From Euplotes aediculatus (lineage: Eukaryota > Ciliophora > Spirotrichea > Euplotida > Euplotidae): a DNA stretch of 23,834 bases. The translations under genes and the position numbers were made by a program. This document shows, piece after piece, positions 94 through 22,995 of this stretch. The stretch's first letter is position 1, and every line of letters begins with the position of its first letter. Under the pieces are notes generated by a model that made no database searches, had not been told where the DNA came from, and saw only the letters and a program-made list of their open reading frames with translations. The DNA lies in contig JAQGFW010015562.1 of the NCBI GenBank assembly GCA_030463445.1, forward strand, positions 1 to 23,834. Direction: 5' to 3'.

Positions 94-3000
94 TTAAAAA
101 ACTAGCTTCTTAAATTCAAACTTCGTGATGAGTCTCAAGATTGCAGCAACAAGTTGTTTCTGGTGAGTTTCAAGCACAACATCTCTTTCGTATCACTCGT
201 TATCTACAAATATATTGTGATTACGTAAGAATCCCTCACCAAAGAATGTTTGTGCATCGCCAGGTGCGAAATCAAAAGCATTAGGTATTGCATAGATATC
301 AATATCTTTAAGAAGCCAAGCCAGTAAAGACCCAATTATAGTTTGTAGCTCGTCTCTTTTGTCCATTTTATGGCTGCAATTTGACAATAGCGTTATTGAT
401 TCGGTTACAAATCTTATTTGGCTAATATTGTTTAAATCAGTTATCTTGTTAAGTTGCTTGTAAATTGATGTCTTGATCTCAAAGATTTTAGATTCGTCAA
501 CTGTCTTTAATTGAATGTTTGGATTTATGTAGCATGATCTGAGCAATCAAATTACAACTTCTAACAAATGAAACGACTTATCATTTACATCCAGAACTGC
601 AATGAGAGAATTAAAATCATACTTTTGTTGGATTTTTTGAATTATGTCTTGATCTTGAGAGAAGCACAGAGCAGCATCAACGAGCATATCTCAAAGCGCG
701 AACTTACTATTTGAATCTTGCTTAAATAGATCGTTATCACTGTCGATCTTATTTCTAAAACATTGTTGAACATCAGTCGAAGGGAATAGGACTGTTTTGT
801 TATTATTCTGATTGTCATCTAAATGTTGCTAATTATTTAAAGAGACTTACTATTTACTTCAGCTGTAGCCTCATCTAAAATATTTATGTATTTCTCCAAA
901 TAGACATCAGCTAATGTTTGTATATCAATCAGATCAAAATACTGCTCTATCCTTTGATTGAAAATAATTATTGCGAGAGCAGAGTTGATAGTCTGATCTG
1001 AAGCTATGTGTTTGGCACATTCCAAAAAGTTATCAATTTGTTCTCCAACTATTAGCTATAACACATAAGTTAGAGAATGACTTCAATTTAAATATTAATG
1101 ACTGCGCTAACAAAATGCACAGAATTATTGAGCTTAAAATCAAATAGGCCAAAACAGATTTCTAACTAAAATTAAATTAATCAGTAGGAACTGGAAATAT
1201 GCATTTAGATAGATAATTTGTATATTATTGTTATATTTATTGTTCATTTTAGAGAATTCAGTATTAAAATCTAATTAATTTTATTCGCGATTTTGAATAA
1301 GTTAATTTAGATTTAAGTTTATATAATCTTAATTTATTAAAATATAAAGAATAAATTACAAGTAAATTTTGTATGATGCTGGATAATGGAATAGAAATTA
1401 AAGAGTTAATAAATATCGCTTATACCACTTTTAAGCAACTCTTTGATATTTTGAAGTTGAAAATAAATATTCTAAGATAAACAATATTGAAGCAGCTGAG
1501 TTAACCAAATCAATTCTTAATATTTCAAATAGGTTTTTATTAAAGAATTTAATATTTGTTTTGATATTTCTGCCAAATATTTCTGCAATTAGAAATGAAT
1601 TTTTTATCTTTAAAATTTAGGTCTGAATTAAAAATGATTATATTATCCAGAAAAATACAATTAGTAATTGCAATATACAAGTAAAATCAATTGAGAGAAG
1701 TCCATATCAAATAGTATCACTCAGGGTTAATTTTTTCTAACAAAGATAAGTTCATTTATATTAAAATTTTATGAAAATCTATGCAATAAATTGTATTAAT
1801 TTGCTAATAGACTTATAAAAAAAACTAAAAATAAGTGTTAAAGGATCACTAATTCAAACTTTATAATTTGATTAATTCTAAAATTCATAAAGTGAAATGT
1901 AAATTACAAAAAATGTTTATTCTTCATCAAATAATAAACAGAAAGATTCATTACACAGCTTAATGATAATTAAATTTGTTTTACCTTAACGTTCATTTGC
2001 CTGAATCAGGTATGTTTTGGCATAACCTTTATTTTCAAGTGTTTATCAACCAAATTCTGATAAAATACAGATATGTATTCGTTTTGATATCAATACTCAA
2101 TGTCTGGATTGTAAAACCTATCAACGAATATGCTCAAGGACTGGTCTGAATAGTAGTTGATTGCTATATAAATGGTTAGACTCTCAAATATCAAAACATA
2201 ATTTATATTAAATATAAAATGAACTTGATTTATCCCATTTGAAATATCAAATCAATTTGGAACACTTCACTTGGATCAAATATAGGGTACTGTAATTAAT
2301 CAAACTTATTTTAGTAGTATAACTACCTCAAGGCAGATTGTTATGCTCTCCTGAAAGTTATGATTTAAGGAATTTAAGCTGAGCATTACAATTGCCAGTA
2401 GGCTGAATCAGTGGTATTTATACGTCTTTATTTTTATTACATTTTATTTAATACATGTCAATAAAATTAAATAAATAACGAGTACGTCTTTAGATTGACA
2501 ATTAACTATTGATCATAAGATCCTTAGGTTTGCAAAAGAAATAGCTTTCGTGATGTCCAAATATATGGCTTTTCAAAGCAAATAAATGTTTGGTTAAACT
2601 TATTATTTTATATACTATAGCTAACAATCAATTACCTAAACAAAAAGTTTTTCCTGAAAATGAGCTGACATTGCAAATGGACAACAAAAATTTTCAAATT
2701 TTACTATACGGAAGAATATTAAAAAAATATTGTATATTTCAGTTCGAGTACAATTGATGAAGGTGTATTTAATTACTAGTAGTTGTGCGCTTTGAAGCTG
2801 ACTCAAATCTAAATCTGATATAGCAACGAAACAGAATGCAATATCATCTAGATATCATTTAATAATTAGATTATAATTTAGGTTTAAGATAGCTTTAAAT
2901 GATAAATAAGAAAAAACAGATAAAACTTAATTATAAAAGTAAACATAATATTAAAATTTGAACTAAATTTTATTAATTGAGCATAGTTTTTAACATTATG

Positions 3001-6000
3001 CTAAAATAATATTATTTAATATTACAAGGTATTCCTTTATCTATTTTTGTTTTAAGTTATAATATCAATTAATATTGAATATAATCGTAAACATTTTTAA
3101 TCTAAATCATCTCAAATATTTCAAACACAATCGTTGATTGTTTACATATAATATTTATTATAATTTATTTTACTTTAACCTCATAAAGCAATTTAAAATG
3201 TTATTATTCAACTTTAAATAAATTGTTTATTTACTGCTTTCTAATAATTTTCCTTTTCTGATCAAAAGTATACTTTAATAAAAGGTGAATATAAGTGGCT
3301 CAAAAGATAATACTGATTTTTCTATTTACAAGAGCCAAAGTATGAGAATTTGTGAGAATCTTTATTCTCCCTTACATGCTTGAGTAACAAGAATATAACA
3401 GTGGCTAACAATTGCAGTACGTCACTTTAAGTTTCACTTACCATTCATGCTTAGAAAGAAATACCAAAAATCAAATCTCTTTTGGAAAGAAATTGGTCCT
3501 ATCCCTTCAAATTCATTAAGTATCTCATTGATTCGATTATTCTTTCAGTACTCTTCAATGTACTGGTAAATTAGTTGATAGACATTGCTTAGGTTCTTGT
3601 CGAATCTTGCTTGGAACTAAATCGAGTTTATATCAAATTGGAATTATTTAGCCAGTACACAAAGAAATCTCGTTTAAGATTTACATTATTAAATTTTAAT
3701 AATTTTAAGCTTTATTTTACTTATTTCAAAATATAGATAAATTTATAAATTTTAACGCAAGCTAGCTCAATAATTATTAGTTTTGTTAAATTTTAATAAT
3801 ATCTTTGAAGCAATCTCTGATTGATTATATGCATATTATAATAATCAAAGTAAATTTCTTAAATAAATTATAGCTTAAATGTTAATATTTTTAAATTGAA
3901 AATACAAAATTAACTGTTTGAATGATAAAAGAATTGTATTTGAACTTATTTTATTTTAAACATTAATTTATTTCTATTTCAAATCAAAATAACAAGATAT
4001 CCTTTTGAACTATCCATTTCATTAATATGATTATTCTTTATAAATAAAATATATTGTAACTAATATAGATTTCTTTAAAATGTCTAATAGTTTAGCATTA
4101 GCAATTTTAACTAATTTTAAATTCAAAAGTTTGTATTTAAAACTTTATTCAAGTAAAGAATGAGTATCCTAGAAGTGATAAATAATCTACCAAACACATT
4201 ACTATTTAATTAACTTCTATTAAACTAAAAAATTGATATATATTTAAATAGTTTTCACTATAAGTTTAGCTTTAAATTATGCGCTTCTCTTAAAGCCAAC
4301 ATTATGATCGAAATTCTATAATTTAATCTGCTCATTTATTGAATTAGATTTTATAAAAGAAATTAAAGTGAATTGTGTAATTTATTAAATGACAAATTTA
4401 TTTTATACTTTGCACTCTTTTTAAGCAAATAAAAAAATAAATGCAACTATTTATTTCATTTCTATCTTCAGACAATATAAAATGTAACTAATATTGAAAT
4501 TCTCCTCCTTGATAGTGTTTATGGTAGAATTATTGTAATTTTAAATCTGCAATTTATCTTAATAAATGATTGAGGTGTCTATTTGTAGTCATTAATAGTA
4601 TTTGAGTAAAAACCAAAGCGCAGTCTGTTAAAGAATGTGCTTGTCTTGTAGCAATCCTTTAAATCAGCAAATTATGTGGCACTTTTTAAAACATTTCTTT
4701 ACCTTCCAATCTAATATATTATTTTCATTTATCTTTCAAATGTTGATGTCTTTATTATTCCTATATTCTCTCCAACTCCCTGCCAATACACGAATACAAT
4801 CTTCATAAGCAGTACTCATCATACTGTCAATTCTGACTAATTCATCTTGTGTATAGTATTGTTCGAGTGAGTGGAGTGAAAAGAGGTAGTCTTGGGAGTG
4901 GAGCTGATCGTATTCTCAGGCCTATACAAAAGAAAATAATACAACATATCATCACACATTCAATATACTGCTTAAAGTAATCAATTACTAGTTGCAGCAG
5001 AGCTAATATTTAAAATTTAAATTCTATCTTTTGGATGACACAAAAGTCTAGAAATTGCATCAATTAAAGGCTATAAGGATGTGATATTGAAGAGTCAATT
5101 TTATTCATTACTGTTAGGTTTGCAATATACTCAAATAATGAGTGTAAAAATGCTAGAATTGCTAGGCAAGGGAATAAGGCTAAAAATATATTTTGAAATC
5201 GATCCTCCCTCAAAGAAAAGAAGTTTGAAATTTACGGAAATATGATTTATTAACTTTCTCTCAATTTTTAATTAAAGATATTTTCGATTTTAATATTACT
5301 TATTATATATTGAATAATAAAAATTTAGAATATCAAATTAATTTTTAATGTAAAGTTTATTTTAATTTACTTAAATTGAAAATTTTTTAATTTAAAATAT
5401 TATCAAGTTATCGAATTAAAATAATTTAAATATTAATTATCAACAATTATATAATATATTTTGTTCAAATAAATCATCTCCTTGTCTTTTTTATTCAGAA
5501 GATAATTTTAATTAATATTAAAAGCTTTTGAGTAATATGATTTTAAAATTAAATATAATCTATGATTAATGAATCTTTTTTTAGCATTTACTTAAAATTT
5601 CTTATTGATTTTTTTGTTTAAATTGAATATCAAATATTCAAATTGCTAAGTTATAACTAACTTGATCTAATATTTAAAAACTGAGTATACTTTGATACCT
5701 GATATTTAAAACTACAATATTTTTATTACTTTGATTGGTTCTTTATAACTAATCAAAATGTTTCAAAAATCTTAGTAGTATCAGTCACTTACTCTCAATT
5801 CTGGCATCAATCCATCCACGCATAGTTTAAGATACTTATTTGGATCTCTATATTAAAAATTGATGTTATCAAATAATATGCAATGAATAGTTGGTAGTGC
5901 AATTAATAATAAATATGTGGTATCAAATGCACACAATTCAGCTTGAATAACTGATACCTGTCAACAATTATCTTGAACTGAGTGCTCTCAAGCAGTTCTT

Positions 6001-6244
6001 TGCTTTCAGATTCCAGTTCGATATCGAAATTATATCTCTTGCCAACTCCAATTATTTTTAATGTTTGGTCGTCTTCTCAAAAGTAAATACAATTTTTTCT
6101 AAATTTTCCTTTCTTCATTTCGAATCAAATTTTCGAATGCTGTTTGTAAAACCTAATTCTTGTAATATAGTTGTGTGGCGGAATTAAATGGAAGTGATCG
6201 AAGGCAGCAACCTGCAAGCTTCTGGGAGTGAGTTCAGACTCAGT
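94..6244 (-). CDS. Gene A: large unrecognised protein, nine exons (5' end missing)
   Basis: Exons on the minus strand are 6244-5958, 5847-5793, 4921-4703, 3616-3442, 2614-2507, 2350-2327, 2289-1985, 1055-858 and 828-94, ending in TAA at 96-94. Every intron starts GT and ends AG and all phases agree, giving 701 codons in frame with no TAA or TAG. About 14 in-frame TGA codons are read as Trp (for example NE-W-YERD, EY-W-KNN). The last exon alone is 245 codons. The N-terminal ~115 residues look beta-rich (IPPHNYITRIRFYK). The rest is helical, with repeat-like leucine-rich helices such as FHLLEVVIWLLRSCYINPN near residue 550, so an armadillo- or RIH-like solenoid is possible. I do not recognise the family. 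The first exon is unresolved: an acceptor TATAG precedes residue 1, and candidate upstream coding lies at about 6285-6400 but gives no clean ATG under this code. Exon 2350-2327 (24 nt) rests only on good splice sites and matching phase. Confidence 0.8.
829..857 (-). other. 29-nt intron of gene A
   Basis: Begins GTAAAT and ends AATTAG. It contains in-frame stops and its removal joins two clearly coding frames in phase 0 (TAE | QHLDDNQ). It is one of the best-supported short introns in the window and anchors the intron model used for the other genes. Confidence 0.75.
1056..1984 (-). other. 929-nt intron of gene A
   Basis: Donor GTAAAA follows KVMPKHT-W-FRQMNVK and acceptor TTATAG precedes LIVGEQIDNF, both phase 0. 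The interior is mostly A/T runs. A short coding-like stretch at about 1060-1170 on the same strand would need TAA and TAG to be sense and was not accepted. No terminal inverted repeats or TA-TA duplication were seen at its ends. Confidence 0.6.
2351..2506 (-). other. 156-nt intron of gene A
   Basis: Donor GTTAAT follows DLMIN at phase 1 and acceptor CTTTCAG leads into the 24-nt exon. An alternative open frame crosses 2330-2420 (helical-looking, LLAIVMLSLNSLNHNF), but its acceptors do not match the phase of the preceding exon. The region could still hold an alternative exon. Confidence 0.45.
2615..3441 (-). other. 827-nt intron of gene A
   Basis: Canonical donor GTAAGTG follows FFLSMN at phase 1 and acceptor CTATAG precedes YKIISLTK, also phase 1. 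The interior is extremely AT-rich. A less AT-rich patch at 3361-3430 carries a second GTAAGG donor-like site, but any exon there (49 nt) would break the phase, so it was not called. Confidence 0.65.
3617..4702 (-). other. 1086-nt intron of gene A
   Basis: Donor GTAAAG follows NNILDWK and acceptor GATTTAG precedes FQARFDKN, both phase 0. The interior is long A/T runs with no open frame worth calling. A patch at 4600-4680 (minus strand) is somewhat richer in G and C but shows no phase-compatible exon. Confidence 0.65.
4922..5792 (-). other. 871-nt intron of gene A
   Basis: Donor GTAAGTGACTG follows LMPELR and acceptor TTTTGTATAG precedes A-W-EYDQLHSQ, both phase 0. A TACTAAG branch-site-like string lies within the first 25 nt, which is close enough to the donor to look like the remains of a much shorter intron. 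The rest is low complexity. Confidence 0.65.
5848..5957 (-). other. 110-nt intron of gene A
   Basis: Donor GTATCAG splits an Arg codon (phase 2) after FKIIVD and acceptor TTTAATATAG restores it before DPNKYLKLC. The exact codon reconstruction makes this a strong junction. A TA-bounded excision at the same place would instead leave an in-frame TAG, so splicing is the better reading. Confidence 0.7.
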
Positions 6245-8709
6245 CTATAATCAAAATTAGTTGGTGCAGTTTACTATAACTAACCACAGGCTTAACTTTT
6301 AATGCACTTCACAAATACTTTATTTAGTGATAATCCATTGCAACTCCAAATTAAAATATTAGTTAGATTTTTAAATATTCGGGCAAATTTGATTCAAAAT
6401 TTTTGAATTTATATATAGCATTTATTTGGTTAAAGAAAACTTATTTTAATATTTACATGGCAAATAAAATATTAACGAAGATGGAGGACTTGAATTACTT
6501 ATTCAAATTCTTGCTTATTATTTAACAAACATGCTCATTTTTTATTTAGCATTAATTTTACATTTATATATTTTTTATTATGATCTAAATAAAATGTTTA
6601 TTTTATTTAAAAGTTTGTTGAAGAAAATTTGAATATTAATCAAATCTGATTTTGAATAATGGACTACAAAAAGTGCACTTGATTTTAAATAAACTGATAT
6701 TTTTTGTTTTAAAATAGTTTGAATTAAGAGTATTTTTAATTCAAAATAGAATACTTGATTATTTTTGGTATTCAACAAAACTTTAAAAAATAACAAGTTT
6801 TGAATTTTGAAACTATACTTTATCTTATTAAAATTTTAACTATTTAAAATTTTCAACAAATATTATGTTTTTTGTTTTATAAACTATATTTTTCATTAAG
6901 TTTTAAAACTTTTGTTTAAATCAAATAGGCTTTAATTATCTTTTATTTTAGAGAATAAACTTCTGATTTTAATAATTTAATTTTTAATGAATAATAATAA
7001 AATGAAGTACTACCTTGTTTAAGATAAATAGTACAAAATGGAGAGAGAAAGATAAGAAGATAGTATTAAGAATAAATAAAGATATTATGTAATAAAAAAT
7101 ATAGTGATTTAAATTTTTAATAAAACTATATAAATTAAATATTTATATGAACAATTAATGCATAATAACTGAATCATGCTACTGTAAAACCTTTTGTTTA
7201 ACCCTCAAAATTAATGAAATTTTAATCAAAAAAATTTTACATTTATTTTTTATAAAACAACTTTATGAAGCCTTCAACATTAACTTTATTTTCATGTTTT
7301 TCCTCAAAATTTATGAGGGTTTCGATCTTTTTTTTAATTTAATTACATAAATTATTTTAAATCTCCATTCTCTAACTTTTTAGAAGTACAGACTTATGAA
7401 GTTCCGTTTAAAGAGCATAAATTAATTCATTTTATTTATATTGATTTCGAACAATTATTATTAATTCTATCAACTCTTTCTTCAATTGCTTTATATTTTC
7501 TTTTACTCTTTATTAGCAATGCATTGAGAGATGATGCAATTAATATAAAATTTTTTTGTAACTTTTATACAACATTATATTTTTTAATTTTACTAATTAT
7601 TAAAATTAACCAAAGTCATTTTAATCAAAAACATCCAAACTCAATAAGCTTATTATTTATTTTTATTAGTAAAAATTCTTACTCCAAATGCTAATAATAA
7701 ATTGGTTTCCTCTAAAACCAAATCAAATTTTTTAGCTGTTATATTAGCCCTCTTAAATTTCGAAAAGTAATAGATTTTCGGGGGAATTAGCCAAATGATT
7801 TCGGTATTTAAATACACCACCTTAAAATGTAATATTTTTACATAACCTATGAATGTTATAAAATATAGATTTATACGTTATTTTGATTACGATAATTTTA
7901 TATGAATAACTATATTTTAATATTGATTATTATGGCATTTTAATAAAGTTTGACTAACTGCAAATTCAATATTACATTCTCTCAAATCTATTTTTCTATA
8001 ATATATTCATTATTTTTGAATCACTGAGTTTTAACCATTTTTGCAATTGTCATTCAAAAAATGATTGACAAGCACCCGTTCTTGTTTCAGAGTTTAAGGG
8101 AGAATGGCACAAATGATTTTCTGCAAACTTAGCAGATGATTTTTATTTATGTATAATAACACTAATTCCCTTTATAAATTAAAGTATTATCTCCGTTGTA
8201 ATTAGTAAATATATATTGTATATTTTATTAGAGTTGACTATTGCATGCCTACTTTATTTAATTGTTTTTAAAATAAAACTGCTAAGTATCTTATAATATT
8301 ATAAGACTGTAATGTTGCGTAAAGATACTTTTAAATATTAGTTTTCCTGAATATAAAATATGATTATATACAAATGAAAGACTAATCAAATTATCGTTAA
8401 ATTTTCATTCACAAATTAATTAATTTTATACTTAATCAAAATGCATAGTTTTGTTTGTTTAATAAGTAGAAGAAATATTGCAATCATAATAAATCTATAT
8501 CAAAATACAGATTTTACAAGTGAAAACTCATTAACCAAGAGCAATAAAATCTTTTATGAGAGATATTAACAAAAACATGTAAATACTGTCCCATTATTAA
8601 AAGTTTTAGTATTTATTAGCATCTACTTAGCATATGTGGTTACTTTTCATGTAAATATTGGCAGTTTTTATGAATGCTAAAAATTTATCCAGCCTAACTG
8701 CAAGTTAAG
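6245..8709. other. AT-rich spacer, no supported gene
   Basis: The first ~150 bases probably hold the 5' exon and leader of gene A: 6285-6338 begins with ATG on the minus strand but has an in-frame TAA, and another frame ends at a GTATTT donor near 6314. Beyond that are long A/T homopolymer-like runs with frequent stops in all frames. A 72-codon minus-strand frame at 6578-6796 is the composition expected by chance (Phe, Leu, Lys, Asn, Ile). The promoter of gene A must lie here, but no element is recognisable. Confidence 0.5.
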
Positions 8710-8942
8710 CTTTAGTGCTTTGTTGTTTACCACAAAAGGACCTTGGAGTTGAAGCCTTTGTTCACGTTTGCACTTCCCTCCTAAACCCCAGAGGAGGTAT
8801 AGACGTGAGCAAGCACATTATAATTAATTTAACGATGTCTCAAATGTTAGTGTTGCCTCAAGTATATGGACGCTGTCTCAGATGCGTGGATGATGTTTCA
8901 AGTCAAACGGATGTTGTCTCAAAGCAACTGATACTACTCTAA
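8710..8942. other. GC-richer island, probable exon(s), strand unresolved
   Basis: This patch is clearly less AT-rich than its flanks. On the plus strand a frame is open from an acceptor-like TTTAG at about 8714 to TAA at 8942, with donor-like GTATAG and GTGAGC near 8798-8806. On the minus strand GGTTTAG and GTGGTAAAC make an equally good acceptor and donor, enclosing a short frame containing EGSANVNKGFNSK. At this base composition I cannot choose. It could be the 5' exon of the plus-strand gene that starts near 9023. Confidence 0.35.
8836..8934. repeat. Degenerate ~20-bp tandem repeat, five copies
   Basis: The core TG(T/C)(C/T)TCA(A/G) starts at 8836, 8854, 8874, 8894 and 8915, giving spacings of 18, 20, 20 and 21 bases. 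Purine-rich GGA or GGAT often precedes the next core. The period is not a multiple of three, so it is not a protein repeat. It may be a decayed minisatellite or a cluster of binding sites. It sits at the 3' side of the GC-richer island. Confidence 0.5.
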
Positions 8943-9022
8943 TATTCTTCTTGTTATAAATTAAACTTTAGAAAAAATGAAGAGTTTGGTGTCAATTTTT
9001 AAAAATACTACCTTAAATATAG

Positions 9023-9444
9023 TGAATTTGATTTGAAAATGCTCAGGCCTCTTTGTGTCAAATATTTTTAGAAGTCATAGAACAAGCAAGCTTAAAAGAT
9101 GAAACGGAATCAGTTGAGAAAACATGTCAAGCATCATTTAAAATACCTCAGGACATGCTTCCGCAAATTACTTTTCCAAGTAATGCAAATACTCAAAAGA
9201 ATATAAAATTTGTAATCACAAATGAGTTTATTCGGAATGTTTGCAAAAGGTTGAAAGGTAATTGCAAAATTGGAGATACTCTCATATTAATTTTTATGTA
9301 TGCACTGATATAAAGAACAGGAAAAGCAAGACTACTAAAGTTTGAGGTGGAAAGAATCATGAGTACCAACAAGAAAGGATAGAGAGGAAATTTAAAGCAA
9401 ATCAAATATCTGTGGATTTCTATAATGAAATAAAAACTGTGAAA
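9023..9444 (+). CDS. Partial unrecognised gene, two exon candidates
   Basis: The first exon starts after a TATAG acceptor at 9022 and is open through a charged stretch (ASLKDETESVEKTCQASFK) to a GTAATT donor at 9258. The second, 9316-9444, reads KTTKV-W-GGKNHEYQQERI and on to a GTAATC donor, with TGA as Trp. The coding strand is purine-rich, as in gene A. The exact junction is unresolved: donor AAAG|GTAATT is phase 1, whereas acceptor ATAAAG| at 9315 is phase 0. An earlier donor at TTT|GTAATC would fit but discards plausible coding. No family is recognised. A frameshifted continuation at 9450-9490 also looks protein-like. The minus-strand frame at 9193-9486 is its shadow. Confidence 0.4.
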
Positions 9445-10033
9445 GTAATCTAATTCTGAAAGGAAAATATGGAAAACTAAAATCATCGTAAATCAATAAA
9501 TTATTTTTCATTTTATGTATTATGATTCATAATATACATAATTTTAAGAAGTTCAAAATTATTTTTTAAAGGACATTTGGAAAATTTTAATATGAATCCT
9601 AAGGATTTGAAAGAAAACCTTTAAATGAAAAGGGTAATTGATATAATGAAGATAATGAAGAGTTATTTGCAGATATTTTTGGTTAAGTAAAATATTCGAA
9701 GAAAAGTAAACACTTAAAAATGAACCAAACTTAATAAAGAAATCAAAGAAGAGAAAATTATTTAATTAATAATCTTTCAAATAACAAATTGCTGAATTTT
9801 ATCAATAAAAATGGATTTAATAAATCAAATAAACAAATTAATCAAGATTAGAATTGAAAAACTTGAAAATAAATAATAGTAAAACTAATCTCTATTATTT
9901 TATATTTTACTGATGTATGTCTCATATTTTAATTATTAGGCCAATACAAAATGTCTGATTTCAATGATTAATTAAATTCCTTAAAATTTTACATCAGAAG
10001 AGAATATAATTTAATTTAAGATTAATTTAATGA

Positions 10034-10267
10034 ATGCATTCAAAATTAAAGATATTAAATCCTTTGTTATTCTTCAGTTCGATGAACTCTGATAAAAATA
10101 ATGCACAAAATATCAAGAGATACTATCCAAAAATCTTTGATTATATTCCTGAATACAAGGAGAACCCAGAGTATATGCCTCAAAAGAAATATATGTGGAA
10201 GATATTTAGCATAAAATATTCATCTTGACAAATAAATATTTCATTCGAGAAAAAACTGAGAAAGTAA
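10034..10267 (+). CDS. Small hypothetical ORF, 77 aa
   Basis: ATG at 10034 directly follows TAA and TGA and the frame runs to TAA at 10265-10267, with one TGA (10229-10231) read as Trp. The middle (KRYYPKIFDYIPEYKENPEY) is rich in aromatics and charges, unlike chance AT-rich frames. It may be a stand-alone gene or the next exon of the gene at 9023. In the latter case GTATAT or GTGGAA donors within it could lead to either of two overlapping downstream frames that end near 10380-10419. One of these contains ATG TCA GAA GAA (MSEELFNQFSSAYYFSYKS), the other NELLRCQKNCSISLAQH. Function unknown. Confidence 0.4.
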
Positions 10268-10419
10268 ATGAATTATTGAGATGTCAGAAGAATTGTTCAA
10301 TCAGTTTAGCTCAGCATACTATTTTTCATACAAAAGTTTTGTTTATGGTCTTTGAATCAAAGATGCTTGGCAATATCATAAAGGAAGAAAGAAGTAGTGA
10401 AAAGAATTTATTATATTAG

Positions 10420-11149
10420 AGTAAATTGAAGAAAGAAAAAATATAAATAAAACAACCAAAGCATTATTAAAATAAAAATAAGAGATAGCACAGAGGTTAC
10501 AATCTAAAGTTACGAAAAAGATGAATAAAATAAAAATGATAGACATGAAGAAAATAAAAGCGAAAAAATAAAATTATATAAAATAATAAATTAATATAAG
10601 CTATTTCAGTTTCTAATTTAGAATTCTGCAAATCAAAATTAAATTTTATATTGATATTTTTTTCTTAACTTTGTTTATTTATATAGTATAAAGGCAAGAA
10701 ATAGAATATCAGCAGCGTAATTTATTATAATGAAATTTGATTAGATTCTACTGATATACTTGATAAACATTTAACTAAATATTTATTTCATGAAGATTCG
10801 TCATAACATTTCATTATTATGTTGAACTTTAAATAGTGCCATATTTAAACATAATTGATCTAATCGATATTTATAATAAATAAACTATAATTAAAAATAC
10901 TAAAGTCAACTTAAAACTTTAAGATTAATGTAAAATGTGTATATTTTATTGAATATTAAAAATAAAATATTGATCAAATATTATCAAATTGTGTAAATTT
11001 GCATATAATTTAGTAAATTATATTTAATAACTTTAATTGCTTAATATAAAATCAAACATCGTTTGTATAAGAATTGATTGTTTTGCTTGCTTTATTAAAT
11101 ATTAGATTCTAAAGATTCTATACTCGATGATTTTATAGCATTAGTTTCC
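10420..11149. other. AT-rich spacer between convergent genes
   Basis: Contains a purine-rich run at 10420-10570 (plus strand, Lys/Glu-like codons), probably the 3' UTR of the plus-strand gene, then plain A/T-rich sequence. The plus-strand gene and gene B converge on this gap. No polyadenylation signal can be told from the background. Confidence 0.4.
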
Positions 11150-12743
11150 TTAAATCAAATAAAAACCTGATCGGATAATAATTGAACAAAAATGAAAGTA
11201 TTCTAAATGGAGCCTGTCTCATTTATAAAATACTGAGTAAAGGTGACGCTTGGGTGTCAAATATATTTGTGCTTTTGCAAAGACGGCCTGAGTTCGGTAA
11301 TCAGACCATTCAATTATTATTCTGGCCTTTTTATTAAAATGTGGAAATGGTATTATACAAGGAAAGATGTATATTAAAAGAGGAGTGTTTTACCCATTTT
11401 AACTAAGTTTTATATTCAATATGTATTCATCAAAATATTACCTGACCGCGATTTTCTTGACTTCTTACGAATCAAAATTCGTTTTTTAAGTAATACTTTT
11501 GTCCAACTCACAATATGTAATTTCTATATAATGATAATTTAGACTAGCAATCGAAGATATCTTCGATTGAATTTATTCAACTAAAGATTTTTAACTTAAT
11601 AAGTATATTATTTAAAGTATACTTTTTAAATAAAATTAGAAACCATATCTCAATTGTTTCGTTATCCATAATTTCTAATTTTAGCTAACTAAGTAGAAAT
11701 TAATATTTAAATAATGTAGGATTATTTAATATAACAAATAATATTAAAAAAATAAATGACATTAAAAATTCAATTTAATACTTATTAAGATAATCGTAAC
11801 CACTACAAGTTATAATTATAATTTGTTAAAATCTAATTTAAATTTAATGATCAATAATGCTTACTTGTCGTATCTTACTTTATATGGATTTGATAATTCA
11901 TTCTTTTTTACAATTTGAACTAATAATTAAAATATAAGTGAATTACATTAAATATGAAAATGAGTGATACTTAACTATGGTAAAATTAAGAGCACAAATA
12001 GAAAATATATAAGTCAATAATAATCTTTTGTATTTATAACCTTTCATCATATCCTTATTTTTAACTGATGTCAAAACAAGCGAACATTGTTGAGTAGCAT
12101 CCTTTGTATTGTATATCCTTGACCCCCATGCCAAGTAATATCTGGTATTGTTTAAATAAGTAAAGAGTGTGTATTCTGTGTGAGTGTCTACGGGTTTGCT
12201 AATTTTTAGTTCAGTTTTCTCTCCGAAATACAGCACAACTGGGTCATCAATATTTTTAACCTCACTAATCTCTGAGTTAAGAAATGCAAGTCAATCAACT
12301 AAATCTATTTCTTTAATACTATTGTATGTTAATGCTCTACTTTGATCTTTCCAGTATAAAATAAAAGGGAGGTTGGGTTTGAATTTATGGGTGAGGGAGT
12401 GTCTGCCAAAAGAATAATCATCTTGCTGTTCCTCCACCGTCTTCATGTAATCTTCTTTCTTAAAATCTTTGAAGTATTCATGATTTGAGAAACAATTGAT
12501 ATTTTTAAAAAGGTCTAAGGTAGTTTGACTATGTCCTGGAGGTCTTATTTCGAAATTATTAAAAGATTGCTTTACTGAACCATATTGTGGGCGCCAATAA
12601 CTATAAGGAATGAATAGCAGGAAGTTTGGAATCGAAAAGGATGGTGAATTGAAGCAACACAAATTTGAAATGCATGCTTTTTTAACAAGCAGTTTAATTA
12701 TGGATCGTAAACGCTATCTAATTAGCAAAAATTTAATTCAACA
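11150..12743 (-). CDS. Gene B: unrecognised protein, about 300 aa plus a missing start
   Basis: Minus-strand exons are 12713-12041 (224 codons, no TAA/TAG), 11919-11865 and 11321-11150 (stop TAA at 11152-11150), totalling exactly 300 codons. Introns are 12040-11920 (GTTATA...TATTAG, phase 1) and 11864-11322 (GTAAGC...GGCCAG, phase 2). A 29-nt intron (12742-12714, GTTGAA...GATAG) links to an upstream exon ending FPNYPKDHF whose own start was not found. TGA is read as Trp at about residues 142 (DLVD-W-LAFLNSE) and 277 (VFYK-W-DRLHLEYF). Recognisable stretches include YWRPQYGSVKQSF, an acidic KKEDYMKTVEEQQDDYSFG, and the C-terminal IIIEWSDYRTQAVFAKAQ. There is no clear transmembrane segment. No family is recognised. 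Confidence 0.65.
11322..11864 (-). other. 543-nt intron of gene B
   Basis: Donor GTAAGC follows NPYKVRYDK at phase 2 and acceptor GGCCAG restores the codon before IIEWSDYR. It contains a perfect 22-bp palindrome at 11548-11569. An upstream stretch 11330-11400 stays open in the frame of the last exon, so the acceptor could lie a little further 5'. A less AT-rich patch at 11455-11490 shows GTAATA and GTAAGA donor-like strings and may hide another exon. Confidence 0.5.
11548..11569. repeat. Perfect 22-bp palindrome
   Basis: The 11-base arm CAATCGAAGAT is followed directly by its exact complement ATCTTCGATTG, with no loop. It lies in an intron of gene B within very AT-rich sequence, so a perfect 22-bp palindrome with eight G or C bases is unlikely by chance. 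It could be a dimeric protein-binding site or a small mobile-element remnant. Confidence 0.75.
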
Positions 12744-17317: not shown

Positions 17318-17969
17318 CTAAAAGTCTAAAGTCACAAGAAATAGATTTGGTTGAATATCCTTAGAAATATTGCTTACATTTTCATAGAATATCAAGGTTA
17401 TGCTGATTTCATCATAGTAATTTAAGTAATTTTCCTGTAATGACTTATATTCTTCCTCTTCCATCTTTTTTACTTCTTCAAAAATATTTTTAATATTTTG
17501 TTCATATCTGTAATTAGCCTCCAATTCATCTATAATGTCTTTTTTGTCGATGACAGGGACGTATTGAGGAGGAGGTTCATATAAATCCTGTTCCAAATCG
17601 TGTTCAGTTATTTCCTCATTTGAATTGCTGCTGTAATCGCTTTGACTCTGTCTGCCAGTACTTGGTGAATAGTTTCTCTAAACAGAGGTAGTTGGACAAT
17701 TGCTTACTCCTGATTCACGATCATTTGCTTTTATTCTTAGTCTGCCTGTAGCCGAACTGTCTCGATTTCGAAGTCTATAAAAGTTTTGGTTTAATCAAAT
17801 TAAGCTCTGTTGCTGCCTCCAATTTGGATCTTAAAGCTTGGATGTGTAATTAGAAAATTTAATTGCTTTCAAACTTCGGATGCTTGGATTATAGTCACAC
17901 AACAATTCACTACAACTGTTACTTTTTTGCGGTGGCGCTTGGATTCAAGTTTTCGAAACTTGAATACAT
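17318..17969 (-). CDS. Gene D: acidic, coiled-coil-like hypothetical protein, 157 aa
   Basis: Exons are 17969-17923 (ATG, MYSSFENLNPSATAKK), 17774-17708 and 17677-17318 (stop TAG at 17320-17318), totalling 158 codons in phase. Introns are 17922-17775 (GTAACA...TTTATAG, 148 nt, phase 2) and 17707-17678 (GTAAGC...GTTTAG, 30 nt, phase 0). Residues ~25-75 are Ser/Arg/Asn-rich and look disordered. EPPPQYVPVIDKKD follows, then a Glu/Lys-rich helix (IFEEVKKMEEEEYKSLQEN) likely to form a coiled coil. A GTAAGC within the last exon (after LIFYEN) could be a donor, making the protein longer. The 148-nt first intron stays open in one frame across most of its length, so the 5' part is less sure. Function unknown. 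A scaffold or cytoskeletal role is only a guess. Confidence 0.55.
17943..17965. repeat. 10-bp inverted repeat with 3-base loop in gene D
   Basis: Arms ATTCAAGTTT and AAACTTGAAT flank TCG. GGATTC at 17941 and GAATCC at 17988 add an outer inverted pair. The structure overlaps the first codons of gene D (SSFENLN), so a stable hairpin would form near the start of its mRNA. It may be coincidental codon choice. Confidence 0.5.
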
Positions 17970-19312
17970 TTTACACAAGTTAATTTCGAATCCAAATTAA
18001 ACTAAGAGACGGCAGTTGAGTAAAATGTATTCAATATTTTATTTTGTTATAAAGATTGAAAATAAAGCAAAATGCTAATTTGTATTGTCCATTAATAATA
18101 GTACTTTCATATTGATATATTATATATAACAGAATTTTATAGAATCAAGAAATTTTAAAAATGAAAAGATCTATCTTGACTTTGAAGGCAAAGTAATGAC
18201 AACATTAATTTTTTTTATTTTAAGCCTCTTCAAATAAATTTCAAAATATCTAAATATAGATTACAATTAAATTATGAAAATAAAAATTACATTTATATAC
18301 TAATAAAATAAAATCGATGGAGATTTTTTCAAGTCAACAGTAATATGTTCTAAATTTTAAGCAGAGACAAGGCAATAGAATATATTGAAGTAAAGGGCTC
18401 AAGCTAAAGCAGATTATTTTAAAACGAGTTGAGGTGCTGAAAAGATCATTTTGACCATTAGTGTGCATTAACTTTTTTAATTTTTTATAATTTAATATTT
18501 TATTATGTTTTAGGTAATTTAAAATGCATTTTATTGAAGATCTGATAAAATGATAAGTCAATGATATTATCAATCAGATAAGAAATAGATTCTATAAATA
18601 CTATTCGTGTTTGAATTCAAAACTATATATCTGATTTAACATACATAACTTTATTAGATTTAAATCTAGGTATAGAATTAATATACTTCTGCATCCAGGA
18701 ATTAGCAACACTCAGAAGGGATTCTAATATCATCAAAATATGAGAATAAGTTCGATTTAAAGAAAACCAATAATCACAATATAATTAAATTACTAATAAA
18801 AGTTTCAATTAATTCATTGCGTCCCTATCATTTAAATTCAAATGAAAAGGGTATCTATTGATATCAATAACTCCGAACTAGCATCATTTTGAGAGCTTAT
18901 TCTGGTTCCAAAAATTTTTTATTTAATTTTTTCGAATTTGTAAATTTTGAAATTCAAATCGATAATAATTTTATTATTTTTAATAGCTTTTTTTAATTGA
19001 TCGGCATATTCCTTATCTTTTTTAATTATTCAAAAATCAATAAAATCTTCCTATTTCCTCTACAGAGTTTTTGTGTACTAAACTGACTTAACACAGTTTC
19101 AGAACTCTGAAACAAAAATAAATTTGATGTGACCTCAAATTCAAAATTTTTCTTTGTTATTGTACTTTATAATGTGTCTGAATTGACTTCAAAGCGAAAG
19201 ATTTAAAGTGTTTATCAGCAAAGTACTCACGAGTGATTATTATAAGCAAAGTTTAGTTATATTTTAAATCCAGACTCTGTCTGGTAGCTAATCTTAATTC
19301 TTGAATTTTAGA
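17970..19312. other. Spacer with one purine-rich candidate
   Basis: At 18350-18480 the plus strand is purine-rich and open (NRIY-W-SKGLKLKQIILKRV), with a TTTAAG acceptor-like site at its start. The opposite strand carries a 79-codon frame (18334-18573) started by TTG. Neither has phase support. A GTTTCAG/CTGAAAC inverted repeat with a 4-base loop lies near 19096-19113. The rest is A/T-rich. Confidence 0.35.
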
Positions 19313-20058: not shown

Positions 20059-21610
20059 TATATTACTATTGACAATAATTAAGTGACTGAGATTATAAAA
20101 CATCTTTCAGCATGCTTAAGAAAAGAAGAAAGAATCAATTGATTTTCAAGAAATTTAAAAATAAGTGCAAGATAAATATATTCTGAATTTAACATAGACA
20201 CAAATTCATTACTTCAAGTTTTGTGTAAATTTAAGTTAGGAGATATTTACTAGAATAAATAAAAAATAGAAAAGCATATCGGCATCTGAAGACTTAACTG
20301 AGGAATACTAAGGAAATATCTGATGTTTGTAAAGAATGCAGAAAACCTTTTTTAAAGATGTCAAAAGTTTCGTAAAAGATACACTAAAAATAAATCTTTC
20401 ATAGAACTTTATTTGAAGATATTCTCAGAAATAGCTTGAATCTGAGCTTATAAAAGAAAATAGTGCCCTCTATCCAATGATAATGAGAGACAAGCAATAT
20501 CTAAATGTGTATTTGCTATCAAAATTATAAAAATATTAGATATATTCTCAATATATATTGATTTTTTCTCTCAAGAAACACAAATACATCATATTCTTGG
20601 CTTGAAAAAGAAAAGTAAGAAAAGCAATATTTACTTAATAAAATCAATCCTCAATCACTGTCATTATATTAGACAATCTAATTTTTGCTTCGGCTGAACA
20701 GGAAAGTGCTAATAGAGAACTATAAAAGGTGTTTTTAATTAAAATTTGAATTAAACTTGATTTAGATGATTATTTTTGAAGTTGGCTTGTCCACATTAAC
20801 AATATCCGACATATCATTCTCTTTCTATGAAGAAATAAATTAAAAAAGAAAGACTTAATCTAGTGTCTATTTTAGTATATTCTTCTGAGTTAGTTTCAGT
20901 GGAGAAAAACATTTATTTGCTCAAGAAGATTATGTTGCAAAAGATTCACATGGTAATGACTAATTATGGTACTCCGAATTCAAAAAGCTAATCTAAAATT
21001 TATGAATTGTAAATCAAATGCAGCAGTTGCAAATATATGAAGTAGTTTGGTATTGAATTAAGCATTTTAGTAGATCATATTAGTGATTTTATTTACATTT
21101 TTTGATAAATTATTAAGCACTAATATTTTGAATTTAATTGACTTCTCTTTGTGCTTTGCATCAAATTGAAAGAAGTAATAATTAATTAGAAGCAAGCCAT
21201 AGTTTTCAAAACTATACTAAATATCATTAAATCTCATTTTGCATAAAAAATACAGACACTATTATTCTTTATGGATGTTAAAATCGAAATTTAGGAGAAA
21301 AACAAATAAAATCGAATTTCTTCTTCCTCGTCCATATCGATTTTCATATTCATAAAAACTGTAATACATACATCCTTGACATAAAAAATCTCAGATGTTC
21401 AAAATATAGATGCCTAATACTCAGTAATTCTATATTATCGACCTCAACATAAGCTCTTTCTATCTTTTATTCAGACAAAGTACTCTTAGAAATCCAAATA
21501 TATCTGATTATCTAGAACCTTGGCAACCGAGTGTTCCGTTCTGAATTCCTAGTACTTTCACTCATAACAACGAATGACGTTAATAACACTCTCTCGTGCT
21601 TATCTAACTA
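20059..21610. other. Mixed region, probable unresolved plus-strand gene
   Basis: The plus strand is purine-rich at 20100-20500 and has several protein-like pieces. One reads ISDVCKECRKPFLKMSK into a GTAAAA donor near 20371, with a CxxC pair. Another, about 20466-20697, is open for some 75 codons (NERQAISKCVFAIKIIKILD). A third lies at 20840-20990 (SSELVSVEKNIYLLKKIML). I could not chain them with matching splice phases. The reverse strand in 20640-21300 also gives protein-like frames, so strand is not settled. No transposase signature was confirmed. Confidence 0.35.
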
Positions 21611-22995
21611 CTATTCATCTTCTATGATTCGAGTTAAATTGGAATTGAAAATTTTCAGCCACATAGAAGAATTAAACTTCTTTTAATTGAACAAACACTG
21701 ACTTCCCAAGTACTCTCTAGCCTGCAACCAACAACTTCTCCAAATATAAAACGATCAGCTGATGTACGATGTGTCAGCTCCGCAGACCTCGCAGTGCTCC
21801 CACCCTTTTGAGGATTAAGGCAAACAGTTTTATAATATCTTTATACTAGTTTTAGAATTATACTTATAGATTTTGGAATTGCGAGGGATGAAACAAACAA
21901 CCAAAATTTGTAACTAAACTCGTCTGTCTCGTTGGGAATAAAAGTGCTCTCATTTAGCAATTAATGATGTTGTGCTTACGAATAGAATTGGTTATTTTCA
22001 TCTTCATCATTTATGCTGGATTCATTTATTCTTGCTTCTGATGTTCTATTGCTGTTTCTATCGTCTTGACTCGTTTGATTGCCTCCCGGTGATTTGACTA
22101 TACAGTGTTAGATACTTTTCATTTAGGGATAAAGCATCAAAACTTTTGGCTTCAGTTTTAAATTACAGACTTATCTGTAAATCTGAGCAAATTTCAACGG
22201 TTGAGTTTCAATGGTGATCTTAAAGTCGTTAATTAACTAAAAAATGCAAACAATAATTTAAGAATTCGACTTAGAAATTAATTATTTGTAGTTCTAAAAA
22301 CTTATTAAGTTTCACATAATACAATAATATTTAATTGTTGGTCACTTAATATCTCTTTTTAGGTTTATAAATGTTGAACAAGTAAAGCATTAGCAATATG
22401 AAAATGGTACTTTATAAATAAATGTAGATTACTTATGATAACATACTCTTTTTCAAAAATACATTTAGTTGTTATAATTATTCTTTTCTTGATAATTATC
22501 TCTCTTTATTGATTTATTATTAGAATATAAAAATTTTGCTATTAAAAGTGCTTGAGGCTTTCAGTTTAAAGTATAAATATCAACCATCCAAAATGAGAAC
22601 CTTGATATTTTCTTATGACAAAATTTTATTTATGAACTTGTAAGAAATAAATTTAATGAATCGTTCATTATTTCAATGGGTGTTTCTTGATAAAAAGACA
22701 AAATTTATATCTGAGTTAAGGACTCAAATACTACTCGAATATAAGTTAACTAATTAAAGTTTTCTTTAACTCAATAATTTAAGCAAATTCTCAGTATCAT
22801 AAGATTATAGTATTTACTTGCAAAAATCAAAGCTGAGCATCGTAAATCAAAATTAGCATAGTTAAAAAGTCATTGTCCATCTCTCTACCTAGTGTTCTGT
22901 GAAATAGAAAATGATTTAGTTTATCTATATTTTAATCTCTCCTCTAAACTAATCACAAATAAATACCCAGTTTGTGTTAGCCAATTCTCAATAGT
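21611..22995 (-). CDS. Gene F: hypothetical membrane-associated protein, at least eight small exons
   Basis: Exons in order are 22995-22967, 22896-22818, 22236 to about 22174, 22097-21980, 21946-21847, 21804-21703 and 21679-21611 (TAG stop). Introns include 33 nt (21979-21947, GTAAGC...GAGAG), 42 nt (GTATAA...AAAAG) and 23 nt (21702-21680, GTCAGT...AAAAG). Exon 2 holds a hydrophobic stretch (FLTMLILIYDAQL-W-FLQ). Exon 4 is Asn/Ser/Asp/Glu-rich and probably disordered (NSNRTSEARINESSINDED). Exon 5 has a second hydrophobic stretch (KFWLFVSSLAIPKS). The C-terminus is KFNSSMWLKIFNSNLTRIIE. One junction fails: exon 22236-22174 meets TAA without a GT donor in phase. The 5' start is uncertain: ATG at 23135 opens MSKQAGSRLFINQNLLIH and is a likely first exon, but its GTTAAA donor is one phase off. 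Function unknown. Confidence 0.45.
22237..22817 (-). other. 581-nt intron of gene F
   Basis: Donor GTAAAT follows L-W-FLQ and acceptor TTTTTTAG precedes LINDFKITIE, both phase 0. The interior is A/T-rich with no candidate exon. It is another long intron in a gene whose other introns are mostly under 100 nt. Confidence 0.5.

What the first reader, a model, noticed from the sequence alone, without database searches (positions are those of the whole stretch)
94..12743. TGA is a sense codon, most likely Trp, with TAA and TAG kept as stops
Seen: in the ~700 codons of gene A there are about 14 in-frame TGA, no TAA or TAG, only about four TGG, and roughly 45 Gln all written CAA or CAG. Gene B adds two TGA in 300 codons. 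If TAA/TAG were Gln, as in many ciliates, dozens would be expected. Known: TGA=Trp occurs in Blepharisma and some colpodeans, and TGA=Cys in Euplotes. Inference: the predominance of TGA over TGG and aromatic neighbours favour Trp, but Cys is not excluded.
Basis: partly seen in the sequence, partly recalled or inferred. Interest (0 to 1): 0.75.

Follow-up and report, generated by a model that had tools for sequence, protein, structure and literature searches.

The report
Stop codon TGA used as sense
In this stretch of nuclear DNA from an unidentified microbial eukaryote, the triplet TGA, normally a stop signal, is read as an amino acid (tryptophan or cysteine, which cannot yet be told apart) while TAA and TAG still end proteins; this kind of code is already known from a few ciliates.

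Summary
The core observation holds. Gene A (minus strand, about 6320-94) is a multi-exon eukaryotic gene. Its well-supported exons hold 613 codons with 10 in-frame TGA, no TAA and no TAG (about 28 TAA/TAG expected). A fuller model with seven phase-compatible GT-AG introns gives 669 codons and 14 TGA, but four of those TGAs depend on uncertain exon edges. Gene B adds one TGA, not two. An unbiased test that allows introns and tries five stop sets singles out {TAA, TAG} for gene A (z 8; the other sets z 0.4-3.8). In-frame TAA and TAG in gene C fall inside GT-AG introns. The terminators seen are TAA, TAA and TAG.

The preference for Trp is not supported. The excess of TGA over TGG only matches the A:G ratio of other codons, the aromatic-neighbour argument fails calibration, and composition favours either residue depending on the assumed background. 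No homologue was found (Pfam, PDB), there is no tRNA in the window, and no genome is held. I put Trp at about 0.50 and Cys (the Euplotes code) at about 0.45. Blepharisma is a poor match (15-16 bp introns; 29-1152 bp here). Either reading is a code type already known in ciliates; the lineage is unidentified.

The parts
94..828 (-). gene A, last exon (244 codons + TAA stop at 96-94); TGA codons at 693-691, 549-547, 195-193
   Evidence: open to TAA/TAG; 0 of 20,000 shuffles open; coding score 74 against the intron model
829..857 (-). gene A intron, 29 nt (GTAAAT...TTAG), phase 0
858..1055 (-). gene A exon, 66 codons, no TGA
1056..1984 (-). gene A long intron, 929 nt (GTAAAA...TATAG), phase 0
1985..2163 (-). 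gene A exon (NYYSDQ...NVK); TGA at 2092-2090 and 2008-2006
2164..2225 (-). either 62-nt AT-rich intron (18% GC, GTTCAT...TATAG) or in-frame coding; unresolved
2226..2289 (-). gene A exon block of uncertain frame; TGA at 2278, 2269, 2254 counted only in one of the models
   Evidence: competing frame YPIFDPSEVFQIDLIFQMG scores better (5.8 against 2.2)
2290..3441 (-). gene A long intron, 1152 nt (GTAAGT...TACAG) in the full model; donor uncertain
3442..3616 (-). gene A exon; TGA at 3547-3545
3617..4702 (-). gene A long intron, 1086 nt (GTAAAG...TTTAG), phase 0
4703..4921 (-). gene A exon, 73 codons; TGA at 4918-4916 and 4738-4736
4922..5792 (-). gene A long intron, 871 nt (GTAAGT...TATAG), phase 0
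5793..5847 (-). gene A exon (DPNKYLKLCVDGLMPELR)
5848..5957 (-). gene A intron, 110 nt (AG|GTATCA...TATAG), phase 2
5958..6244 (-). gene A exon, 95 codons; TGA at 6127-6125 and 6079-6077
6245..6284 (-). gene A intron, 40 nt (GTTAGT...TATAG), phase 0
6285..6320 (-). partial 5' exon of gene A, left edge and start codon not found; TGA at 6311-6309 uncertain
11943..12713 (-). gene B main open frame (secure 12695-12054), TAA at the end; single TGA at 12293-12291; 3 TGG
   Evidence: open frame z 9.7 with TGA sense, 8.4 with the standard code
17318..17972 (-). gene C, ends in TAG (17320-17318); in-frame TAA (about 17833) and TAG (about 17680) each lie at the 3' end of a GT-AG intron (45 nt, and 30 nt GTAAGC...TTTAG), so both can still be stops
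   Evidence: sequence read directly

Best explanation
The window is nuclear DNA of a microbial eukaryote in which the release factor no longer ends translation at UGA and a tRNA reads UGA as an ordinary amino acid, while UAA and UAG remain the stops. Shown here: spliced genes with in-frame TGA, no in-frame TAA/TAG, and TAA or TAG as terminators. Inferred: that an altered eRF1 and a UGA-reading tRNA (tRNA-Trp reading UGA, or tRNA-Cys with anticodon UCA) do this. The amino acid is not decided: Trp about 0.50, Cys about 0.45, anything else about 0.05. The source is most likely a ciliate, and then the germline (micronuclear) genome rather than the compact macronucleus, because genes are few and four introns of gene A are 0.9-1.15 kb.
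For: Gene A: 10 secure TGA (up to 14) and 0 TAA/TAG where 28 were expected. TGA-sense is the only stop set that gives a spliced frame far above its shuffles on this strand: z 8.1, real 1477 against a shuffle maximum of 699; the other four sets z 0.4-3.8; opposite strand 0.9; non-coding controls about 0. Seven GT-AG introns in the full model are phase-compatible, mostly with GTAAG/GTAAA donors and TAG or CAG acceptors. Exons are 32-36% GC against 20-27% in introns, like the 31.3/23.3% reported for Euplotes octocarinatus (PMC4759687). GC around TGA codons is close to that around other codons, so TGAs do not mark hidden introns. Terminators of genes A, B and C are TAA, TAA and TAG.
Against: Nearly all the weight lies on one gene; gene B adds one TGA, and the gene C tail has none. 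There is no RNA evidence for any intron, and no homologue to fix a residue at any TGA. TGA codons are as easily coverable by a chance GT-AG pair as other codons (11 of 14 against 517 of 654), so single TGAs could be spliced out, though not all of them plausibly. No tRNA, rRNA or other taxonomic marker is in the window, and motif counts for Euplotes IES ends and chromosome-breakage sites are at chance.
Confidence: 0.88

Rival explanations
1. TGA is tryptophan (the Blepharisma/Colpoda type of code): a tRNA-Trp reads UGA, by a UCA anticodon or a modified near-cognate CCA tRNA.
For: TGA makes up 0.61-0.71 of TGR codons, equal to the A-ending share (0.61-0.64) of other NNR codons in the same exons. 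Trp is the usual amino acid in UGA readthrough and near-cognate reading (PMC4967479). Blepharisma and Colpoda are reported to use UGA=Trp (PMC2633312). Total Cys stays at 1.3-1.6% of residues.
Against: Trp would reach 2.3% in gene A, high for most proteins. Blepharisma itself does not fit by intron length or by frequency of UGA. Context scores do not single out Trp.
Confidence: 0.5
2. TGA is cysteine (Euplotid nuclear code, table 10) and the window is Euplotes-like germline DNA.
For: Euplotes uses UGA=Cys with UAA/UAG stops (PMC4759687, PMC9797194, PMC2633312). Exon and intron GC match E. octocarinatus. Two places could be read as Euplotes-style +1 shifts at a TAA (gene A about 2232, gene C about 17924). 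Cys would be 2.9% and Trp 0.7% in gene A, close to usual.
Against: Average intron length in E. focardii is 69 bp with 1.8 introns per gene (PMC8455672), whereas gene A has seven, four of them 0.9-1.15 kb. Motifs of E. crassus IES ends (TATRGCR, recalled) and of the chromosome-breakage site (HATTGAAAHH, recalled) are not enriched. TGA would be 11 of 24 Cys codons. Both +1 shift readings have other explanations.
Confidence: 0.45
3. Standard code, with the TGA codons lying in unrecognised short introns or in a decayed gene.
For: Short introns of 29-110 nt exist here and do hold in-frame stops in gene C. GT-AG pairs that could remove a TGA are common by chance.
Against: A decayed gene would also hold TAA and TAG: about 28 expected, 0 seen. 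The intron-aware scan under the standard code gives 451 against 1477 nt under TGA-sense. GC around the TGAs is exonic (0.31 against 0.33).
Confidence: 0.06
4. All three stops are sense, read in a context-dependent way (Condylostoma/karyorelict type).
For: Gene C's frame runs through one TAA and one TAG.
Against: Gene A writes all 39 Gln as CAA/CAG and has no TAA/TAG. Both stops in gene C fall at the acceptor ends of good GT-AG introns whose removal keeps the frame. The TAR-sense scan gives z 0.4 for gene A.
Confidence: 0.03

Closest known systems
Euplotid nuclear code (NCBI table 10; UGA = Cys, UAA/UAG stop)
   Same: Same sense/stop partition of the three codons; similar exon and intron GC; short GT-AG introns present.
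   Different: Residue at TGA not established; four introns near 1 kb and low gene density, unlike Euplotes nanochromosomes; no Euplotes marker found.
Blepharisma / Colpoda nuclear code (UGA = Trp, UAA/UAG stop)
   Same: Same sense/stop partition; TGA:TGG ratio as expected for synonymous Trp codons.
   Different: B. stoltei introns are predominantly 15-16 bp and its macronuclear genome is gene-dense; B. japonicum uses UGA at 0.059%. Here introns are 29-1152 nt and TGA is above 1% of codons. Colpoda gene structure could not be compared.
Condylostoma / karyorelict codes (all three codons sense, stop by context)
   Same: UGA is sense.
   Different: TAA and TAG are absent from 827 secure codons here and serve as terminators.
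Code 4 of mycoplasmas, reduced symbionts and mitochondria (UGA = Trp)
   Same: UGA sense, UAA/UAG stop.
   Different: Those genomes are gene-dense without spliceosomal introns; here genes are sparse and split by GT-AG introns, and no organellar or bacterial family was found.

Membership tests
UGA-sense / UAR-stop nuclear codes (common to both readings) | TGA inside coding sequence, TAA and TAG absent from it | tested here: met
   11 TGA, 0 TAA, 0 TAG in 827 secure codons; 39 TAA/TAG expected
UGA-sense / UAR-stop nuclear codes (common to both readings) | Genes end in TAA or TAG, not TGA | tested here: met
   Genes A, B, C end in TAA, TAA, TAG; only three genes
Euplotid nuclear code (table 10) | TGA aligns with conserved Cys, or TGA sites are Cys by peptide | not testable with these tools
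   No homologue in Pfam or PDB
Euplotid nuclear code (table 10) | tRNA-Cys with UCA anticodon in the genome | not testable with these tools
   No tRNA in the window; no whole genome held
Euplotid nuclear code (table 10) | Organism is Euplotes | tested here: inconclusive
   GC fits; IES-end and breakage motifs at chance; long introns atypical
Blepharisma/Colpoda nuclear code (UGA=Trp) | TGA aligns with conserved Trp | not testable with these tools
   No homologue found
Blepharisma/Colpoda nuclear code (UGA=Trp) | TGA:TGG ratio follows the A:G ratio of other NNR codons | tested here: met
   0.61-0.71 against 0.61-0.64; not exclusive to Trp
Blepharisma (the organism) | Introns of 15-16 bp | tested here: not met
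   Introns of 29, 40, 110 and 871-1152 nt against PMC9942806
Condylostoma/karyorelict code | TAA and TAG used as Gln inside genes | tested here: not met
   0 TAA/TAG among 827 codons; 46 Gln all CAA/CAG
Bacterial or organellar code 4 | Gene-dense genome without spliceosomal introns | tested here: not met
   Few genes in 23.8 kb, GT-AG introns down to 29 nt, no bacterial or organellar family

The most novel reading that the evidence does not exclude
The window comes from a lineage outside Euplotes, Blepharisma and Colpoda, possibly not a ciliate at all, that independently reassigned UGA alone (to Trp) while keeping UAA and UAG as stops, in an AT-rich, intron-rich, gene-poor nuclear genome.
Probability: 0.25. 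Interest if true: 0.6.

Novelty: new member of a known kind. Interest (0 to 1): 0.38.

Why it matters
A confirmed UGA-only reassignment in a sparse, intron-rich genome would add a data point on how single stop codons are captured, and would warn that automatic gene calls on such contigs are wrong. If the contig is ciliate germline DNA, kilobase introns of this kind would bear on how eliminated sequences hide in introns. As it stands, both possible codes are already described in ciliates.

Tried and rejected
Pfam scans of single open frames, of spliced models with X at TGA, and of the whole window in six frames with stops masked: no family. PDB phmmer of genes A and B: only insignificant hits (PEX3 E 0.058; others 0.7 or more). 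AlphaFold without an alignment for two exons of gene A: mean pLDDT 46.5 and 44.5, too low to search. Relatives of genes A and B in viral contigs and an exact probe in viral contigs and genome contigs: nothing; metagenome contigs were not available. Trp/Cys context classifier built from bacterial loci: held-out AUC 0.62, but the two proteins have a general offset and TGA sites lie at it (z -0.34), so no verdict. Long introns as DNA-eliminated segments: direct repeats near the ends found only a 13-mer in one intron, and removing a TA-bounded block from the one junction tried by hand breaks the reading frame, so they were kept as spliceosomal introns. Possible paralogy of genes C and D: not supported by tblastn within the window.

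Full report
What was checked. The finding says that TGA is a sense codon, most likely Trp, in two minus-strand genes between 94 and 12743, with TAA and TAG kept as stops. I rebuilt the genes from the sequence, tested the code without assuming it, and then tried to identify the amino acid and the organism.

Gene A. On the minus strand, blocks open to TAA/TAG line up at 6244-5958, 5847-5793, 4921-4703, 3616-3442, 2163-1985, 1055-858 and 828-94. Between them lie GT-AG introns of 110, 871, 1086, 929 and 29 nt, with a 40-nt intron before the first block and one uncertain long junction at 3441-2164. In the full model all seven introns are phase-compatible, and the spliced frame has 669 codons followed by TAA. 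Four of the 14 TGA are not secure. One is in the partial first exon. Three are in the block 2289-2226, where a different frame (YPIFDPSEVFQIDLIFQMG) scores better as coding and the following 62 nt (18% GC) look like an intron. The secure set is ten TGA in 613 codons, against 28.4 TAA+TAG and 5.1 TGA expected from position-specific base composition.

Gene B. The frame 12713-11943 is open to TAA/TAG and holds one TGA (12293-12291), three TGG and six TGT/TGC.

Its frame seems to run through a TAA and a TAG, but each is at the 3' end of a GT-AG intron (45 and 30 nt) whose removal keeps the frame. So these two codons need not be sense, and gene C itself ends in TAG.

Unbiased code test. A dynamic programme looked for the longest spliced open frame (GTA donors, TAG/CAG acceptors, a penalty per intron) under five stop sets and compared it with dinucleotide-preserving shuffles. 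For gene A the real value under TGA-sense is 1477 against 448 +/- 126 (maximum 699; z 8.1). The standard code gives 451 (z 3.8), TAG-sense z 2.0, TAA-sense z 1.2 and TAR-sense z 0.4. The opposite strand (z 0.9) and two non-coding stretches (z 0 or below) show nothing under TGA-sense. Gene B is a long open frame under both the standard code (z 8.4) and TGA-sense (z 9.7), so it adds little. Gene C does not favour TGA-sense (z 1.7, against 4.5 for the standard code and 6.6 for TAG-sense); its secure last exon holds no TGA. The claim therefore rests mainly on gene A.

Are the TGAs hidden in introns? GC around TGA codons is 0.314 against 0.331 around other codons, while introns are 0.20-0.27. Chance GT-AG pairs could cover most codons, TGA or not, so single sites cannot be cleared, but the joint pattern of many TGA and no TAA/TAG has no such explanation.

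Trp or Cys? Three indirect tests disagree or are silent. First, TGA is 0.61-0.71 of TGR codons, equal to the A-ending share of other NNR codons (0.61-0.64): just what synonymous Trp codons would show, but 11 TGA among 24 Cys codons is also possible. Second, composition: ln(Trp:Cys) runs from -4.4 to +4.4 as the assumed background frequencies change. Third, a context classifier from 3128 Trp and 2663 Cys sites of bacterial proteins (held-out AUC 0.62) first seemed to favour Trp, but residues of every type in these two proteins score above zero, and TGA sites sit at the mean (z -0.34). No homologue exists in Pfam or PDB, and there is no tRNA or Rfam family in the window.

Which organism? No genome is held, and the window is not in viral contigs or genome contigs. 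Blepharisma stoltei is gene-dense with introns of predominantly 15-16 bp (PMC9942806), and B. japonicum uses UGA at only 0.059% (PMC4967479), so Blepharisma is a poor match. Euplotes has the same sense/stop partition with UGA=Cys (PMC9797194, PMC4759687) and exon/intron GC of 31.3/23.3% in E. octocarinatus, close to that here. But mean intron length in E. focardii is 69 bp (PMC8455672), whereas four introns of gene A are about 1 kb. Sparse genes and long introns would fit a ciliate germline (micronuclear) contig, in which eliminated DNA may sit in introns, or a non-ciliate protist; this step is inference. Motifs recalled for E. crassus IES ends and chromosome breakage are at chance level. Two places can be read as Euplotes-like +1 shifts at TAA (gene A about 2232 and gene C about 17924), but each has other explanations and they are only leads.

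Verdict. The reassignment of TGA to sense, with TAA/TAG as stops, is well supported (confidence 0.88). The amino acid is open: Trp about 0.50, Cys about 0.45. Both are known code types, so this is a new member of a known kind from an unidentified lineage.

Noticed in passing
window 2289-2164 (minus): A better-scoring frame (YPIFDPSEVFQIDLIFQMG) ends at a TAA (about 2232) and could rejoin the downstream exon of gene A by a +1 shift at that TAA plus a 62-nt AT-rich intron, as in Euplotes shifty stops.
   Followed up: partly
window 17972-17924 (minus): The only ATG seen just upstream of gene C opens a 16-codon frame ending in AAG TAA, and the long gene C frame is exactly +1 to it; another possible shifty stop, or an unrecognised intron.
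   Followed up: partly
window 5792-4922, 4702-3617, 3441-2290, 1984-1056 (minus): Intron sizes of gene A are bimodal: 29-110 nt and about 0.9-1.15 kb. The 871-nt intron has a 13-bp direct repeat (TTTTAAATATTAG) near both ends. Possibly introns enlarged by germline-limited DNA.
   Followed up: partly
window 8650-8950 (+): GC-rich island (up to 0.43) with degenerate repeats of TGTCTCAA-like units spaced about 22-25 bp; no protein or RNA family.
   Followed up: no
window 21265-22200 (minus): Another GC-rich stretch that looks like a multi-exon gene on the minus strand, with blocks such as SPGGNQTSQDDRNSNRTSEARINESSINDEDENNQFYS; the code scan was not informative there.
   Followed up: partly
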